Positions 2,187-34,515 of a DNA stretch of 40,262 nucleotides are shown piece by piece. How positions within the stretch are numbered: position 1 is the first letter of the stretch; the number at the start of each line of letters is the position of its first letter. The notes under the pieces were generated by a model. The model saw only the letters and a program-made list of their open reading frames with translations. It ran no database searches and was not told the DNA's origin. This stretch comes from Elusimicrobiota bacterium. GTDB taxonomy: Bacteria; Elusimicrobiota; Elusimicrobia; UBA1565; UBA9628. The translations under genes were made by a program, and so were the position numbers. The stretch is from assembly GCA_016182905.1 (NCBI GenBank), contig JACPFR010000003.1, positions 1 through 40,262 on the forward strand, written 5' to 3'.

Positions 2187-3230
2187 GTGGACCAATTTGC
2201 TAACCTTCCCCCCATGAGGGCCCTTTTCGCCGCCGCGCTCGTCCTGCTCGCCGTCCACGCGGGCGCGGCGACGCCGTCGAAGGTCAAGCGCGGCAACCTC
2301 GAGATCAAGGTCAAGGTCACGGGGACCGTCATCCCGGACGACATCTTCCGCATCAAGGCGACGATCGAGGGCCGCGTCGAGAGCGTGCTGACCTCGACCT
2401 ACGTCTGGCGCGGCGCCGACCAGCCGCTGGCGTTCCTCGCGCACAAGGAGCTCGCGGCGATGCTCGACTCCAAGGGCTCGCAGAACGTGGACATCCTCGA
2501 GGACCGCTGGCAGCGGGTGTACCGGCCGACGGCCGCGCGCTGCCCCGACACCTGCTTCATCCTGAAGAACTTCCTGAAGGCGAAGACGTGGGTGAAGCCC
2601 GAGTCGGTGATGTTCGAGGCCGCCGGGTCGCTCAAGCTCGTCGCGCGCGTGCGCCCCGAGGACGCCGCCTGGATCCGCGACGGCCAGGACTTGGTGTTCT
2701 GGCCGGCCGACGACCCGAAGCGGCGCCTGCGCGGCCGCGTGACCAAGTTCATCCTCGACATCCAAGGGGAGAAGGTCACGCCGGGCGCGACCTTCACCTT
2801 GGTCATGTCGCCCGACCGCTACTTCAACCCCGGGACCGCGTGGGAAGGAGAGATCGTCCCGCTGTCGAAGAAGGACGTGCTCTTCGTCCCGACCGACGCC
2901 CTGATCAGGGAGGGCGGCGTCACCTACCTCCCGGTCCGCGTCTCCACCGGGATCACGACGCAGGGGCTGACCCAGATCACGGCCGGCGTCGAGGAGAAGC
3001 GCGACGTCCTCGTGCTCGACGACGCCCAGCTCCACGGAGCGGCGCGCCACAAGCAGGAGGCCGACCTCGAGGCCCTTAAGCGGCGCGCGCGCGCCCAGCA
3101 GGGCGTCGAGGAGCCCGAGGCGCCGGCGCTCGGGCCCGCGGCCCCGAACGGGAAGAAGAAGAGCAAGCACGCCACGGTGATCGAGGACGACACCGATTAC
3201 GGGGAGGATCCGTATGCCGAGCCCCAATAA
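2187..3230 (+). CDS. HlyD/RND-adaptor-like periplasmic protein
   Basis: A 347-residue exported protein. The segment KVKRGNLEIKVKVTGTVIPDDIFRIKATIEGRVESVL (about 33-68) is the start of membrane-fusion/adaptor proteins. LVARVRPEDAAWIRDGQDLVFWPAD and the following beta-rich part (about 150-270) resemble the barrel and membrane-proximal domains. The alpha-hairpin is short, and no pump or outer-membrane partner is adjacent, so the role in efflux is uncertain. The C-terminus is a charged, Pro/Lys-rich tail. The hydrophobic signal core starts at the internal Met10 (ATG 2214), but the GTG at 2187 is 6 nt after the -10 box and fits a leaderless start; both remain possible. The end overlaps glgC by 17 nt. 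Confidence 0.65.
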   Translation: MDQFANLPPMRALFAAALVLLAVHAGAATPSKVKRGNLEIKVKVTGTVIPDDIFRIKATIEGRVESVLTSTYVWRGADQPLAFLAHKELAAMLDSKGSQNVDILEDRWQRVYRPTAARCPDTCFILKNFLKAKTWVKPESVMFEAAGSLKLVARVRPEDAAWIRDGQDLVFWPADDPKRRLRGRVTKFILDIQGEKVTPGATFTLVMSPDRYFNPGTAWEGEIVPLSKKDVLFVPTDALIREGGVTYLPVRVSTGITTQGLTQITAGVEEKRDVLVLDDAQLHGAARHKQEADLEALKRRARAQQGVEEPEAPALGPAAPNGKKKSKHATVIEDDTDYGEDPYAEPQ

Positions 3231-4458
3231 GCCCAACATCGCGCCGACGCGGCGCGTGCTCGCGATCGTCCTGGCCGGAGGCAAGGGCGAGCGCCTGCAT
3301 CCCCTGACCCACGAGCGCTCCAAGCCCGCCGTGCCGTTCGGCGGCAAGTACCGCATCGTGGACTTCGTGCTCTCGAACCTCGTCAACTCGGGCATGCTCT
3401 CGATCTACGTCCTGGTGCAGTACATGTCGCAGAGCCTCATCGAGCACCTGCGCTCCAACTGGCGGACCGCCGGCCTCACGCGCGAGCACTTCATCACCGT
3501 CGTGCCCCCGCAGATGCGCCTCGGCACGATGTGGTACCGGGGGACCGCGGACGCGGTCCGCCAGAACCTGAACCTGATCCACGACTTCGACCCCGACCTC
3601 GTCGTGGTCTTCGGCGCCGACCACGTCTACCGCATGGACGTCGGCCAGATGATCCAGCGGCACGTCGAGAAGGGCGCCGACGTCACGATCTCGACGATAC
3701 CGGTCCCCCTCAAGAGCGTGCCGTCCTTCGGCATCGTGGAGACCGACAAGAGCGGCCGGGTCATGGAGTTCATCGAAAAGCCCCTCGCGGCCGACCCGAT
3801 GCCCGGCAGCTCGACCCACGCGCTGGCGTCGATGGGCAACTACGTCTTCACGAAGGACGTCCTCGTGGACCTGCTCAAGAACCACCACAAGGACGAGAGC
3901 GACCTCGACTTCGGCAAGAACGTCCTCCCGGCCATCCTGAAAAGCCATAAATTGTACGCCTACGACTTCTCGACCAACGTCCTGCCCGGGCTCAAGGCGT
4001 ACGAGGAGCAGGCGTACTGGCGCGACGTCGGGACGCTCGGGGCGTTCTACCAGTCCAACATGGACATCCTGGGGGCGCGGCCGCGCCTCAATCTCAACAA
4101 CCGCCGCTGGTTCATCCACTCGGGCCGCTACGACGGGCCGCCCGCCAAGGTGCTCGACGGCAAGCTGACGAACTGCATCATCAGCGACGGCTGCTTCGTG
4201 CGCAACGCGACGATCAAGAACTCGATCATCGGGCGCGGCGTGCACATCCACGACGGGGCGGTGATCGAGGACTCGATCATCATGGACTTCTGCAAGGTCC
4301 GGTCCGAATCCCACCTCAAGCGCGTGATCGTGGATCGCTTCAACGAGATCCCGGCCAAGCTCAAGCTCGGCTTCAACGCCGAGGAGGACGCGAAGCGCTA
4401 CTTCGTCGACCCCAGCGGCATCGTCATCGTGCCCCGCGGCACGACCGTCCCGCGTTGA
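3214..4458 (+). CDS. glgC: Glucose-1-phosphate adenylyltransferase
   Basis: A 414-residue enzyme making ADP-glucose from ATP and glucose-1-phosphate, the committed step of bacterial glycogen synthesis. Recognised by LAGGKGERLHPLT (about 20-32, nucleotide loop), SKPAVPFGGKYRIVDF, YRGTADAVRQN, GADHVYRMD, FGIVETD, FIEKP, the YWRDVGT sugar-site segment and a C-terminal left-handed beta-helix of hexapeptide repeats (IISDGCFVRNATIKNSIIG). Length is normal for the family. GGGGAGG (3200-3206) precedes the ATG, which lies inside the end of the upstream gene. The stop overlaps the next gene's TTG start (TTGA), indicating translational coupling to a response regulator, an unusual neighbour for glgC. Confidence 0.95.
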   Translation: MPSPNKPNIAPTRRVLAIVLAGGKGERLHPLTHERSKPAVPFGGKYRIVDFVLSNLVNSGMLSIYVLVQYMSQSLIEHLRSNWRTAGLTREHFITVVPPQMRLGTMWYRGTADAVRQNLNLIHDFDPDLVVVFGADHVYRMDVGQMIQRHVEKGADVTISTIPVPLKSVPSFGIVETDKSGRVMEFIEKPLAADPMPGSSTHALASMGNYVFTKDVLVDLLKNHHKDESDLDFGKNVLPAILKSHKLYAYDFSTNVLPGLKAYEEQAYWRDVGTLGAFYQSNMDILGARPRLNLNNRRWFIHSGRYDGPPAKVLDGKLTNCIISDGCFVRNATIKNSIIGRGVHIHDGAVIEDSIIMDFCKVRSESHLKRVIVDRFNEIPAKLKLGFNAEEDAKRYFVDPSGIVIVPRGTTVPR

Positions 4459-31552: not shown

Positions 31553-32056
31553 GTCGCACCTCCGCAGCACCCGGAGGGCGAGGGACCCGAGGAAGGCCGA
31601 ACGGCGAGGAATAAATGGCGGGGCCCCACCCTGGAGACGGCCCCCGGTGCAGCCGGGCTGGCCGCCTCGCGGCACGCGAGCCGTCCGAAAACTAGGGGCT
31701 AGGCGGGGGTTGGGCCAGGTTTTCGGATCGCCGGCGGGGAGGGCCGTTTATGCCGCAGTGAGGAGGCCTTCGCTCCTGGAGTCCCGAGAAGCGAGGGGCG
31801 ACATGAAAAAGACCGGAAAGGAGGAGGACGGGACGGGAAGGCGTGAAAAAAGCCAAGAAAAAATCTCCGCCGCCGAGCGGTGGAGACGGTGGAGTTCTCG
31901 GTCCCTGCCATCCGCAGGGCAGGGAGGAGCGTCCGCGGACCGTTCCGCGCGCCCCGGCAGGGGCGGAGAAATCCAAGCGGCGGTGGGCGGGGTGGGCGAC
32001 CTGCTCGTCCACGCCGTCCACGGTCGCGGCGGTATCCACCGCAGGTCCTAGATAAG
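31553..32056. other. Long non-coding region with inverted duplication of the sigma-gene leader
   Basis: An inverted repeat TCCGAAAAC (31684-31692)/GTTTTCGGA (31719-31727) marks a centre of symmetry. From it, leftward to the sigma ATG (31552) and rightward to an ATG at 31803, similar sequences run in opposite directions: GCC(A/G)TTTAT, GGCCTTC, and around the start GCGACATGAAAAAGACC is identical in both. The rightward copy could encode MKKTGKEEDGTGRREK and on to 32051, but it soon diverges and shows no sigma domain, so I do not call a gene. Further hairpins (for example CCCTGC/GCAGGG near 31904-31920) are present. Confidence 0.55.
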
Positions 32057-32062
32057 ATGGAC

Positions 32063-32149
32063 GAGCCGTACACCTGATCCCGTCGTTGTAGAATGCGCGG
32101 GTTGCTTCGGAAGAAGCCTATCCGCATACAACACGGAGGTGTACGGCTC
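32063..32149 (+). ncRNA. Structured left-end region of an IS110-family relic (bridge-RNA-like)
   Basis: An 87-nt fold with a 13-bp perfect outer stem GAGCCGTACACCT (32063-32075)/AGGTGTACGGCTC (32137-32149), an inner stem GTTGTA (32085-32090)/TACAAC (32127-32132), TGCG/CGCA (32094-32097/32123-32126) and an apical hairpin GCTTC-GGAA-GAAGC (32104-32117), with large internal loops. It ends one base before an ATG that opens an IS110-type transposase. IS110-group elements encode a bridge RNA in this left-end non-coding segment, with stem-flanked internal loops that pair with target and donor DNA. The assignment as bridge RNA is inference; 5' extent is unknown. GTAGAATG (32088-32095) can alternatively pair with CATTCTAC (32157-32164). 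Confidence 0.45.
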
Positions 32150-32150
32150 T

Positions 32151-32186
32151 ATGAGTCATTCTACCACAGTAGTCGGTTTGGACGTC
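32151..32186 (+). pseudogene. N-terminal stub of an IS110-family transposase
   Basis: Twelve codons reading MSHSTTVVGLDV, the characteristic N-terminus of IS110-family DEDD transposases (usually continued as HKD), including the first catalytic Asp. After GACGTC at 32186 the similarity stops abruptly in a C-run, and the frame runs into the next gene's upstream region. GGAGG (32135-32139) lies upstream, inside the outer stem of the structured region. It is a deletion remnant abutting the promoter of the DUF3536 gene. Confidence 0.65.
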
Positions 32187-32202
32187 CCCCCCCGGAAAAA
32201 AC

Positions 32203-32208
32203 TACAAT
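32203..32208 (+). promoter_or_regulatory. -10 box for the DUF3536 gene (leaderless)
   Basis: TACAAT ending 6 nt before GTG 32215. The only -35-like hexamer, TTGGAC (32178-32183), lies inside the IS110 transposase stub at a long 19-nt spacing. Confidence 0.5.
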
Positions 32209-32214
32209 GGCACC

Positions 32215-34515
32215 GTGAGCCATCGGCATATCTGCGTCCACGGCCATTTCTACCAGCCCCCGCGGGAGAACCCGTGGACGGGGACGGTGGACCGAGAGGC
32301 CTCGGCGGCCCCCTTTCACGACTGGAACGCGCGCGTCGCCGAGGAGTGCTACGGGCCGGTCACCTTGGGCGTCCATGGCGGGTCCGACGGGCGGACGATC
32401 GCCTACGACGAGACGCTCAAGCGCCTCTCCTATGACTTCGGCCCGACCCTGATGTCGTGGCTCGAGAGCGAGCGTCCGGCCATCCTGCGCCGCGTACTCG
32501 CCGCGGACGCGGCCACCCAGACGGCGATCGCGCAGCCCTATTTCCATAATATATTGCCCTTCGAGTCGCCCCGCGACAAGGAGACCTTGGTGCGCTGGGG
32601 CCTGGCCGAGTTCCGTCATCGCTTCGGCCGCCCGGCGAAAGGCATGTGGCTTCCCGAGACGGCGGTGGACGTCGAGACGCTCGAGGTCCTCGCCGGCCAC
32701 GGCGTCGAGTTCACCATACTCGATCCCAAGCAGGGCGAGGCGGTGCGCGACCTCGGCTCCGACGCCTGGGTCAAGCTCGACGCCGAGCACATCGACCCGA
32801 AGACCCCGTATCTCTGGGTGTCGCCGTCGGACCCGTCCAAGAAGCTCGTGATCTTCTTCTATCATCACCGCCTGTCGGCCGGGATCGTCAGCGGCGAGAC
32901 GACGGTCAGCGCCGAGCACTTCGCCGGCGCCGTGCGCGGCCGGCCCTGGGAGGGCGACGCCGCCCAGCTCGCCCACGTCGTCAGCGACGGGGAGTTCTAC
33001 GGCCACCACCATCCGGGCGCCGAGCGCGTGCTGGCGCTGACGCTCGACCTTCTCGAGGCCGACGGAATCCCGGCGACCGACCCCGCGCGCTTCCTCGCGC
33101 TGTTCCCCCCGCCCCACGAGGTCCGCATCCGGGAGAACACCTCCTGGAGCTGCGACCACGGCCTCGGCCGCTGGGACAAGGACTGCGGCTGCCGCTCGGC
33201 GCACCTGCCCGACTGGGACCAGCGGTGGCGGACCGGGCTGAGAGACGCCCTCAACAGATTGGCCCACCGCCTCGACGCGTTCTACGAGGACGACGCCTCG
33301 CGCTTCTTCGACGACCCGTGGAGGGTCCGCGACGAGGCGTCGGTCCTGTGGCTCGAGCCCGGCGACGAGCGCGCCTCGGCGTTCCTGAAAGCGCACGCCA
33401 AGCGCCCGCTTCTCGCCGACGAGGAGAGGCGCGCCCTCAAGCTGCTGACGATGCAGCGGGAGCGCCTGGCCATGTTCACGAGCTGCGGCTGGTTCTTCGA
33501 CGACATCTCGGGCGTGGAGGCCGTGCTGTGCCTGACCCGCGCCGCGCGGGCCATCGACCTCGCCAAGCTGCTCGGCGAGGACGCCGAGGAGGCGTTCGTC
33601 GAGCGACTTGCCGCCTGCCGCTCGAACCTGCCCCGCTTCGAGAACGGGGCTAAAGTATGGAGGACTATGGTGGCCTCGTCGCGCGTCGGCCTGCCCCGCG
33701 CCGCGGCGCACGCGGCCGTGCTCGACCATCTCGGCCTGCCTGCGCCGGAGCCGCCGCTGCTGCGCTGGACGGCCGGCCCCGCGTTCCGCGCGGACAAGGC
33801 GGGCCTCGCCGGCCGCGAGCGGACCCTGTCGGTCCGGGACGTGACGGTCCGCTCCGTCGACACCCGGCAGAGCGCCGAGCTCCACGCGATCGTCCATCGC
33901 GCCGACCGTCTCGACTTCGCCGTCTGGCTCGCCCCTCGCCGCGAGGCGCTCGATCCGCTGACGATCGGGGACCAGTTCCTGCGCCTGCCCGACGACGAGT
34001 TCCGCGCGGCGATGGACGAGCGCTTCGGCCCCTCGGCCTTCGGCCTCGACGCGGTGCTCAACGACGAGCGCGCCGAGGTGGTCAAGTCCCTGGCCGGCGC
34101 GGGCGCGCTCGGCGCCTCCCGCGCCGCCTACCTCAAGCGCTGGGTCGAGTGCATGGCCGCGTTCCGCCGCGGCGGGCGGGAGGACGACGCCGTGCTCCAG
34201 CTCCTGTCCGAGTCGGCCGTGCATTCCTTCAACGCCTCCGAGCTGCCCTGGTCGTACGAGCTCGAGGACCGTCTCCACCGCCACATGGAGGCCGTCGTCG
34301 CCGAGCCCGTCGACTCCGCGCGGGCGTCGCGCGCCCTGCGCTGGCTCGACGCGCTCTGGGACGCCGGCCTTCTCGCCGGGACCTGGCGCCTGCGCGACGC
34401 CCAGCAGCGCTGGGCCGCCGCGCTCGAGGGACGAGGACCGTCGGCCGCGCTCGACGCCTGCCGCGCCGTCGGCGCGCGGCTCGGACTGGCCGACGCTTCA
34501 CGGGGGATCTGCTGA
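32215..34515 (+). CDS. DUF3536 / GH57-like glycoside hydrolase
   Basis: A 766-residue protein of the DUF3536 type, related to family 57 alpha-glucan hydrolases/transferases. It opens HICVHGHFYQPPRENPW (5-21), the GH57-like first strand. WLPETAVD (145-152, candidate nucleophile E148) and VSDGEFYGHHH (256-266, candidate acid/base D258) follow, then a Cys-rich loop SWSCDHGLGRWDKDCGC. The C-terminal half is helical. It probably acts on glucans, which would fit a glycogen-making cell, but the substrate is inferred. The GTG start is 6 nt after a TACAAT box, suggesting a leaderless mRNA. The stop overlaps the PhoH start by one base (TGATG). Confidence 0.85.
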   Translation: MSHRHICVHGHFYQPPRENPWTGTVDREASAAPFHDWNARVAEECYGPVTLGVHGGSDGRTIAYDETLKRLSYDFGPTLMSWLESERPAILRRVLAADAATQTAIAQPYFHNILPFESPRDKETLVRWGLAEFRHRFGRPAKGMWLPETAVDVETLEVLAGHGVEFTILDPKQGEAVRDLGSDAWVKLDAEHIDPKTPYLWVSPSDPSKKLVIFFYHHRLSAGIVSGETTVSAEHFAGAVRGRPWEGDAAQLAHVVSDGEFYGHHHPGAERVLALTLDLLEADGIPATDPARFLALFPPPHEVRIRENTSWSCDHGLGRWDKDCGCRSAHLPDWDQRWRTGLRDALNRLAHRLDAFYEDDASRFFDDPWRVRDEASVLWLEPGDERASAFLKAHAKRPLLADEERRALKLLTMQRERLAMFTSCGWFFDDISGVEAVLCLTRAARAIDLAKLLGEDAEEAFVERLAACRSNLPRFENGAKVWRTMVASSRVGLPRAAAHAAVLDHLGLPAPEPPLLRWTAGPAFRADKAGLAGRERTLSVRDVTVRSVDTRQSAELHAIVHRADRLDFAVWLAPRREALDPLTIGDQFLRLPDDEFRAAMDERFGPSAFGLDAVLNDERAEVVKSLAGAGALGASRAAYLKRWVECMAAFRRGGREDDAVLQLLSESAVHSFNASELPWSYELEDRLHRHMEAVVAEPVDSARASRALRWLDALWDAGLLAGTWRLRDAQQRWAAALEGRGPSAALDACRAVGARLGLADASRGIC

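What the first reader, a model, noticed from the sequence alone, without database searches (positions are those of the whole stretch)
32063..32186. IS110-family left-end relic with a bridge-RNA-like structure
A multi-stem fold with a perfect 13-bp base ends one base before an ATG whose 12 codons read MSHSTTVVGLDV, the IS110 transposase N-terminus. IS110-group elements place their bridge RNA just here. The element is cut off after the first catalytic Asp, so this is a fossil guide-RNA locus whose internal loops may still record donor/target specificity. Two mutually exclusive pairings (GTAGAATG with the inner stem or with CATTCTAC in the coding start) hint at a switch.
Basis: partly seen in the sequence, partly recalled or inferred. 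Interest (0 to 1): 0.75.

Follow-up and report, generated by a model that had tools for sequence, protein, structure and literature searches.

The report
Left end of IS1111-type insertion sequence
This is the left end of a common kind of RNA-guided jumping gene; it looks like a cut-off fossil almost certainly because the genome assembly broke inside the repeated element, and the RNA fold in front of its gene is most likely a brake on translation, not the targeting guide, which lies at the element's other end.

Summary
The fold and the MSHSTTVVGLDV start are real. The sequence is the left end (LE) of an IS110-family element of the IS1111 type. Three more copies in the same genome are identical over 140 bases, and each stops at a contig end at the same point, one assembly word (about 141 bases) into the element. 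Three matching right ends (RE) lie at other contig ends. The cut at 32187 is therefore almost certainly an assembly artefact, not a fossil. Intact relatives show a ~361-aa DEDD transposase, 7-bp/3-bp terminal extensions, a subterminal inverted repeat, a 260-400-nt RE and a circle-junction promoter. The programmable guide is in the RE: 6-9 nt after GAGAAYCCTCG are complementary to the target's right flank (z about 12 against permuted flanks); the LE shows no such match. 'Bridge RNA in the LE' is therefore not supported. The 87-nt fold is conserved with compensatory changes and pairs the Shine-Dalgarno site. Best reading: a 5'-UTR structure restraining transposase translation, as shown for ISPpu9. 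The proposed switch pairing occurs only in the nearest relatives. Mildly new: the leader's inner RNA motif, found in relatives from many phyla and absent from Rfam.

The parts
32047..32187 (+). 141-base block shared with three other contigs of the same genome; ends at the assembly break
   Evidence: Identical over 140 bases in C8, C29, C19, each of which stops here at its contig end
32048..32049 (+). CT, left half of the target next to the element
   Evidence: Left flank ends in T in 25 of 30 relatives with mapped ends; CT in all four copies of this genome
32050..32056 (+). Left tip of the element, AGATAAG: 7-bp extension outside the inverted repeat
   Evidence: Flanks diverge outside this point in G007 and G044 copies; same AGAYANN tip in relatives
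32053..32058 (+). -10 half (TAAGAT) of the promoter formed when the ends join in the circle; the -35 half (TTGACT) is in the right end on other contigs
   Evidence: TTGAC(A) and YANNAT 16-19 bp apart in 28 of 30 relatives; TTGACTCGGCTCGTCCATATC in three right ends of this genome
32057..32067 (+). Left subterminal inverted repeat ATGGACGAGCC
   Evidence: Perfect partner GGCTCGTCCAT in the right ends on C26, C31, C43
32063..32149 (+). 87-nt leader hairpin; basal stem 32063-32075 with 32137-32149
32097..32125 (+). Conserved inner stem-loop of the leader (GCGGGTT...CCTATCCGC)
32135..32139 (+). Shine-Dalgarno sequence GGAGG, paired inside the hairpin
   Evidence: same pairing tendency in relatives
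32151..32186 (+). First 12 codons of the transposase gene (MSHSTTVVGLDV)
32187..32188 (.). Junction of element and GH57-gene leader; assembly join (inferred)

Best explanation
It is the left end of a multi-copy, probably intact IS1111-type (IS110-family) insertion sequence in an Elusimicrobiota genome; the interior is missing from the assembly because the copies are identical. In the excised circle the -35 of the right end and the -10 of the left end join into a promoter. Its transcript should start at or near the base of the 87-nt hairpin and read through tnp into the right end, which carries the target guide. The hairpin pairs the Shine-Dalgarno site and so keeps transposase translation low while the guide RNA downstream is still made. 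Shown here by sequence: ends, inverted repeat, promoter halves, right-end guide/target match in relatives, conservation of the hairpin with compensatory changes, pairing of the Shine-Dalgarno site. Inferred: that the hairpin lowers translation in the cell, that transcription starts near 32063, and that the window copy is intact in the cell.
For: Copies and contig-end pattern. Intact relatives with the same left end before an IS110-family transposase. IS1111-type ends in about 30 elements. Right-end guide complementary to the right target flank, z 10-12, at one conserved place; no left-end signal. Leader: covariation score 0.318 against 0.100 shuffled, 94.7% of cells paired against 82.7%; Shine-Dalgarno less accessible than in shuffles in 65 of 75 relatives, median z -2.9. 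Precedent: leader of ISPpu9 tnp hides its ribosome-binding site, and weakening it raised expression 26-fold (PMC8450116).
Against: No reads or RNA data were available, so neither the assembly artefact nor the translation effect is proven. The sequence right of 32187 lacks the AGAAGCG seen at the other three right ends, so more than the element's interior is missing if the copy is intact. Only the last 141 bases of this genome's own right end are known, so its own guide was not seen. The sequence conservation of the inner stem-loop is more than a pure Shine-Dalgarno cover would need. The canonical IS1111 member IS5075 has only a weak leader fold (z -1.0), so the strong leader is not a general IS1111 feature.
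Confidence: 0.8

Rival explanations
1. One reading: the left-end fold is a bridge RNA whose loops pair with target and donor.
For: In the IS110 group the bridge RNA is upstream of the gene (PMC11208160). The fold is conserved. One of twelve flank tests was nominally significant for the left end (p 0.0025).
Against: Ends are of IS1111 type. The stretch that tracks the target is in the right end (z 10-12), while anchored left-end tests give p 0.06-0.42, and the left-end matches lie at scattered positions. The left end is only about 100 nt long.
Confidence: 0.05
2. True relic: everything after the first 138 bp of the element was deleted at this site.
For: The contig reads through without N, and the order of neighbours is plausible (glgC and GH57 gene on the same contig). 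Truncated left ends do occur in relatives (L010, L012, L017).
Against: The stub has the length at which the three other copies break, 140-141 bases; by chance about 1 in 1000 for an element of about 1.5 kb.
Confidence: 0.07
3. The leader is bound by the transposase itself through the conserved inner stem-loop, as feedback control of its own translation, beyond simple masking of the Shine-Dalgarno site.
For: Inner motif in 43 of 80 leaders against 0-2 of 80 in shuffles, with five versions of its stem; its sequence is more conserved than the basal stem.
Against: No binding data; by eye no copy of the motif in the right-end RNA; the motif in this strict form is absent from 37 of 80.
Confidence: 0.2
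4. A switch: GTAGAATG pairs either within the leader or with CATTCTAC in the coding start.
For: Perfect 8-nt complementarity in the window (0 of 200 shuffles as long) and 7 nt in G046.
Against: The longest Watson-Crick matches in eight other relatives are 3-6 nt, at chance level (P 0.14-1.0), while the main fold is conserved.
Confidence: 0.04

Closest known systems
IS1111-family insertion sequences with a downstream seekRNA (ISEc11, ISPa11, ISKpn4; PMC11187229)
   Same: 7-bp left and 3-bp right extensions, subterminal inverted repeat, long non-coding region after tnp with a guide complementary to the target, promoter at the circle junction, DEDD transposase with GLxP....SG
   Different: Transposase about 361-368 aa instead of 330-350; only 26% identical to IS5075; strong structured leader over the Shine-Dalgarno site
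ISPpu9 (IS110 family), structured tnp 5'-UTR (PMC8450116)
   Same: Leader fold that covers the ribosome-binding site of the transposase gene
   Different: There the leader is about 245 nt and is opened by an antisense RNA, Asr9; here about 87 nt, no antisense RNA known, inner motif conserved
IS621 / IS110-group bridge RNA (PMC11208160)
   Same: RNA-guided DEDD recombinase family; structured RNA upstream of the gene
   Different: IS110-group guide is in a long left end; here the left end is about 100 nt without guide signal, and the guide is in the right end

Membership tests
IS110 family (DEDD transposase) | Transposase with the DEDD and IS116/IS110/IS902 domains | tested here: met
   Relative L009: PF01548 E 5e-14, PF02371 E 2e-22, NF033542 E 6e-72. 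For the window copy itself only 12 codons exist, and they match relative L007.
IS1111 type | Subterminal inverted repeat of about 7-17 bp | tested here: met
   ATGGACGAGCC / GGCTCGTCCAT in this genome, on different contigs; 8-15 bp in relatives
IS1111 type | Asymmetric extensions, 7 bp left and 3 bp right | tested here: met
   AGATAAG and ATC; left flank divergence supports the left tip
IS1111 type | Longer non-coding region downstream of tnp, with guide complementary to the target | tested here: met
   Right end mostly 260-400 nt; guide/right-flank match z 10-12 in relatives. This genome's own guide is not in the assembly.
IS1111 type | GLxP....S(T)G motif in the transposase C-terminal part | tested here: met
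   76 of 80 relatives, counting VxP; the nearest Elusimicrobia copies have S for P
IS1111 type | Circle intermediate with junction promoter | tested here: inconclusive
   -35/-10 halves at the right spacing in 28 of 30; circle formation not testable
IS110-group left-end bridge RNA | Left-end loops complementary to target flanks | tested here: not met
   Anchored left-end tests p 0.06-0.42; scattered matches only
ISPpu9-like translation-inhibiting 5'-UTR | Leader fold that pairs the Shine-Dalgarno site | tested here: met
ISPpu9-like translation-inhibiting 5'-UTR | Weakening the fold raises translation | not testable with these tools
   Needs a reporter assay

The most novel reading that the evidence does not exclude
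The leader's conserved inner stem-loop is an unrecognised RNA element, shared by this transposase clade in many phyla, which the transposase binds to repress its own translation while the same transcript still yields the guide RNA downstream.
Probability: 0.2. Interest if true: 0.5.

Novelty: new member of a known kind. Interest (0 to 1): 0.27.

Why it matters
It corrects a tempting reading: a fold in front of an IS110-family transposase is not a bridge RNA by default. A simple sequence test (does the stretch track the target flank?) puts the guide at the right end in a broad, little-described IS1111-type clade. A conserved leader RNA may set transposase dose in RNA-guided elements that are of interest as DNA-writing tools. 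It also warns that 'relics' which end one assembly word inside a repeated element are likely assembly breaks.

Tried and rejected
Rfam: no match for the window at gathering level, none for 31990-32230 up to E 5, and none in the leaders of 15 relatives. Plasmid DNA search: no match. Right-end top-strand and left-flank matches: no or weak signal. Model R1, built from Elusimicrobia leaders, reaches only a few alphaproteobacterial leaders, so the broad conservation rests on the motif test and the anchored test (stem complementary in 19 of 22 against a mean of 6.0 with shuffled partners). Chimera of unrelated contigs: considered and thought unlikely, because glgC and the GH57 gene, neighbours in relatives, are both on this contig. 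The closing list stopped on an error after its statistics were complete. Locus L123 (a plasmid copy next to an annotated enterotoxin gene, brought in) was left unused. A transposase tree with reference elements was not built, for want of reference sequences.

Full report
What is there. Window 32063-32149 folds into an 87-nt structure with a perfect 13-bp base (-50.7 kcal/mol, z -7.3, no shuffle as good). One base separates it from ATG 32151, and twelve codons read MSHSTTVVGLDV. The Shine-Dalgarno sequence GGAGG (32135-32139) is paired inside the fold.

Not a relic. The window is the whole of contig C3 of a 3.98-Mb, 63-contig genome, which by its relatives is an Elusimicrobiota member (the G006 contig with the related element has the length of JAHFCE010000014.1). 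Three further copies of the same stretch, identical over 140 bases, lie on C8, C29 and C19, and each runs to the end of its contig: 74155 of 74156, 6385 of 6385, 113047 of 113048. Contigs C31, C26 and C43 begin or end with the matching right end of the element, with 140-141 shared bases before the flanks diverge. This is how a word-based assembly with k about 141 breaks at identical multi-copy elements. The block in the window, 32047-32187, has that length, and its last base is the base at which C29 ends. A real deletion would have to fall there by chance, about 1 in 1000 for a 1.5-kb element. I therefore take the junction as an assembly join. It is not proven, because reads were not available, and the sequence right of it lacks the AGAAGCG target half seen at the other three right ends. 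The contig as a whole is plausible: the glgC-type gene (3214-4455) and the GH57 gene (32215-34515), neighbours or a few kb apart in relatives, are both on it. Genome G041 shows the same pattern of element ends at contig ends.

Intact relatives and the kind of element. The same left end stands about 97-105 bp before full-length transposases in G007, G044, G006 and others, and before a partial one in G046 that shares MSHSTTVVGLDV. The protein is an IS110-family DEDD transposase (PF01548, PF02371, NCBIfam NF033542). A protein search gave 80 relatives from records labelled with more than ten phyla. In about 30 both ends could be placed: left tip AGAYANN (7 bp), then a subterminal inverted repeat of 8-15 bp; right end mostly 260-400 nt after the gene, then the inverted repeat and a 3-bp tip ATC, followed by target AG or AA. 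These are the published marks of the IS1111 type (PMC11187229), and the GLxP....SG motif fits too. Joining the ends makes a promoter: TTGAC(A) near the right tip and YANNAT in the left tip, 16-19 bp apart, in 28 of 30 elements. Named elements in plasmids are far off (IS5075, 26%), so this is a separate clade within the type.

Where the guide is. If an RNA stretch names the target, it must change with the target. I compared each element's right target flank with its right-end region and with its left-end fold, and permuted flanks among elements as control. In the right end a stretch complementary to the flank is found far above chance (7-mers: 5.93 matched bases against 4.47, sd 0.12, z about 12). 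It sits at one place, just after a conserved GAGAAYCCTCG and mostly 77-117 bases before a conserved ATATCAG motif. The elements are not all independent, but they come from different phyla and have different targets. The left-end fold gives nothing reliable (p 0.06-0.42). One of twelve earlier tests was nominally significant for the left end (p 0.0025), but its matches lie at scattered positions. The guide is therefore in the right end, as in IS1111 seekRNAs, and the left fold is not a bridge RNA.

What the fold does. Over 15 leaders aligned to a covariance model, 94.7% of cells are paired against 82.7% in shuffles, cells with changes on both sides number 35 against 8.7, and the covariation score is 0.318 against 0.100; sliding the partners by one base destroys this (the alignment was fitted to the model, which favours the structure). 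In 75 relatives with a recognisable Shine-Dalgarno sequence the median leader z is -2.9, and the site is less accessible than with shuffled upstream sequence in 65 (start codons chosen by rule). An inner motif, a 4-bp stem closed around RTTR ... GAG and a variable hairpin, occurs in 43 of 80 leaders against 0-2 in shuffles, with five stem versions. Rfam has no match. The fold begins about 5 bases after the -10 element, so the junction-promoter transcript should start at or near its base (inference). The best explanation is a leader that restrains transposase translation. ISPpu9, another member of the family, is the experimental precedent: weakening its leader raised expression 26-fold (PMC8450116). 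Because tnp and the guide share one transcript in IS1111-type elements, such a brake would allow guide RNA with little protein; that last step is inference.

The switch. GTAGAATG/CATTCTAC is a perfect 8-base match in the window and 7 bases in G046, but at chance level in the other eight relatives tested. It is not a conserved feature.

Verdict. An ordinary member of a known kind of RNA-guided insertion sequence, seen through an assembly break, with a conserved leader structure that is mildly new. The most novel reading not excluded is that the inner leader motif is a transposase-binding regulatory RNA element.

Noticed in passing
L021:1501-1619 (G041:C77:20703-20821): A solo 119-bp left end followed by its own inverted tip, so that the whole piece is one near-perfect hairpin (-79.9 kcal/mol, z -10). 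It has no transposase and no right end, and is the only such copy found in 44 genomes of the family. Possibly a miniature derivative.
   Followed up: partly
window 4456-32047: About 28 kb separate the glgC-type gene and the GH57/DUF3536 gene here, while in related genomes they are adjacent or 3-4 kb apart: a variable region or island with the insertion sequence at its right edge.
   Followed up: partly
L010, L012, L017: Left ends in relatives that are followed by other sequence soon after the start of tnp or within the leader: candidates for real relics, unlike the window copy. Not checked for assembly breaks.
   Followed up: no
L005:1501-1929 (G000:C27:22271-22699): A second, unrelated IS110-family transposase gene in the same genome (open frame 355 aa).
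   Followed up: no
L023 and L030 (G046:C147): Two different IS1111-type right ends on one contig, each with a guide stretch that matches its own right flank (TCGAACT with AGTTCGA; CGCAACT with AGTTGCG), read from the sequences.
   Followed up: partly
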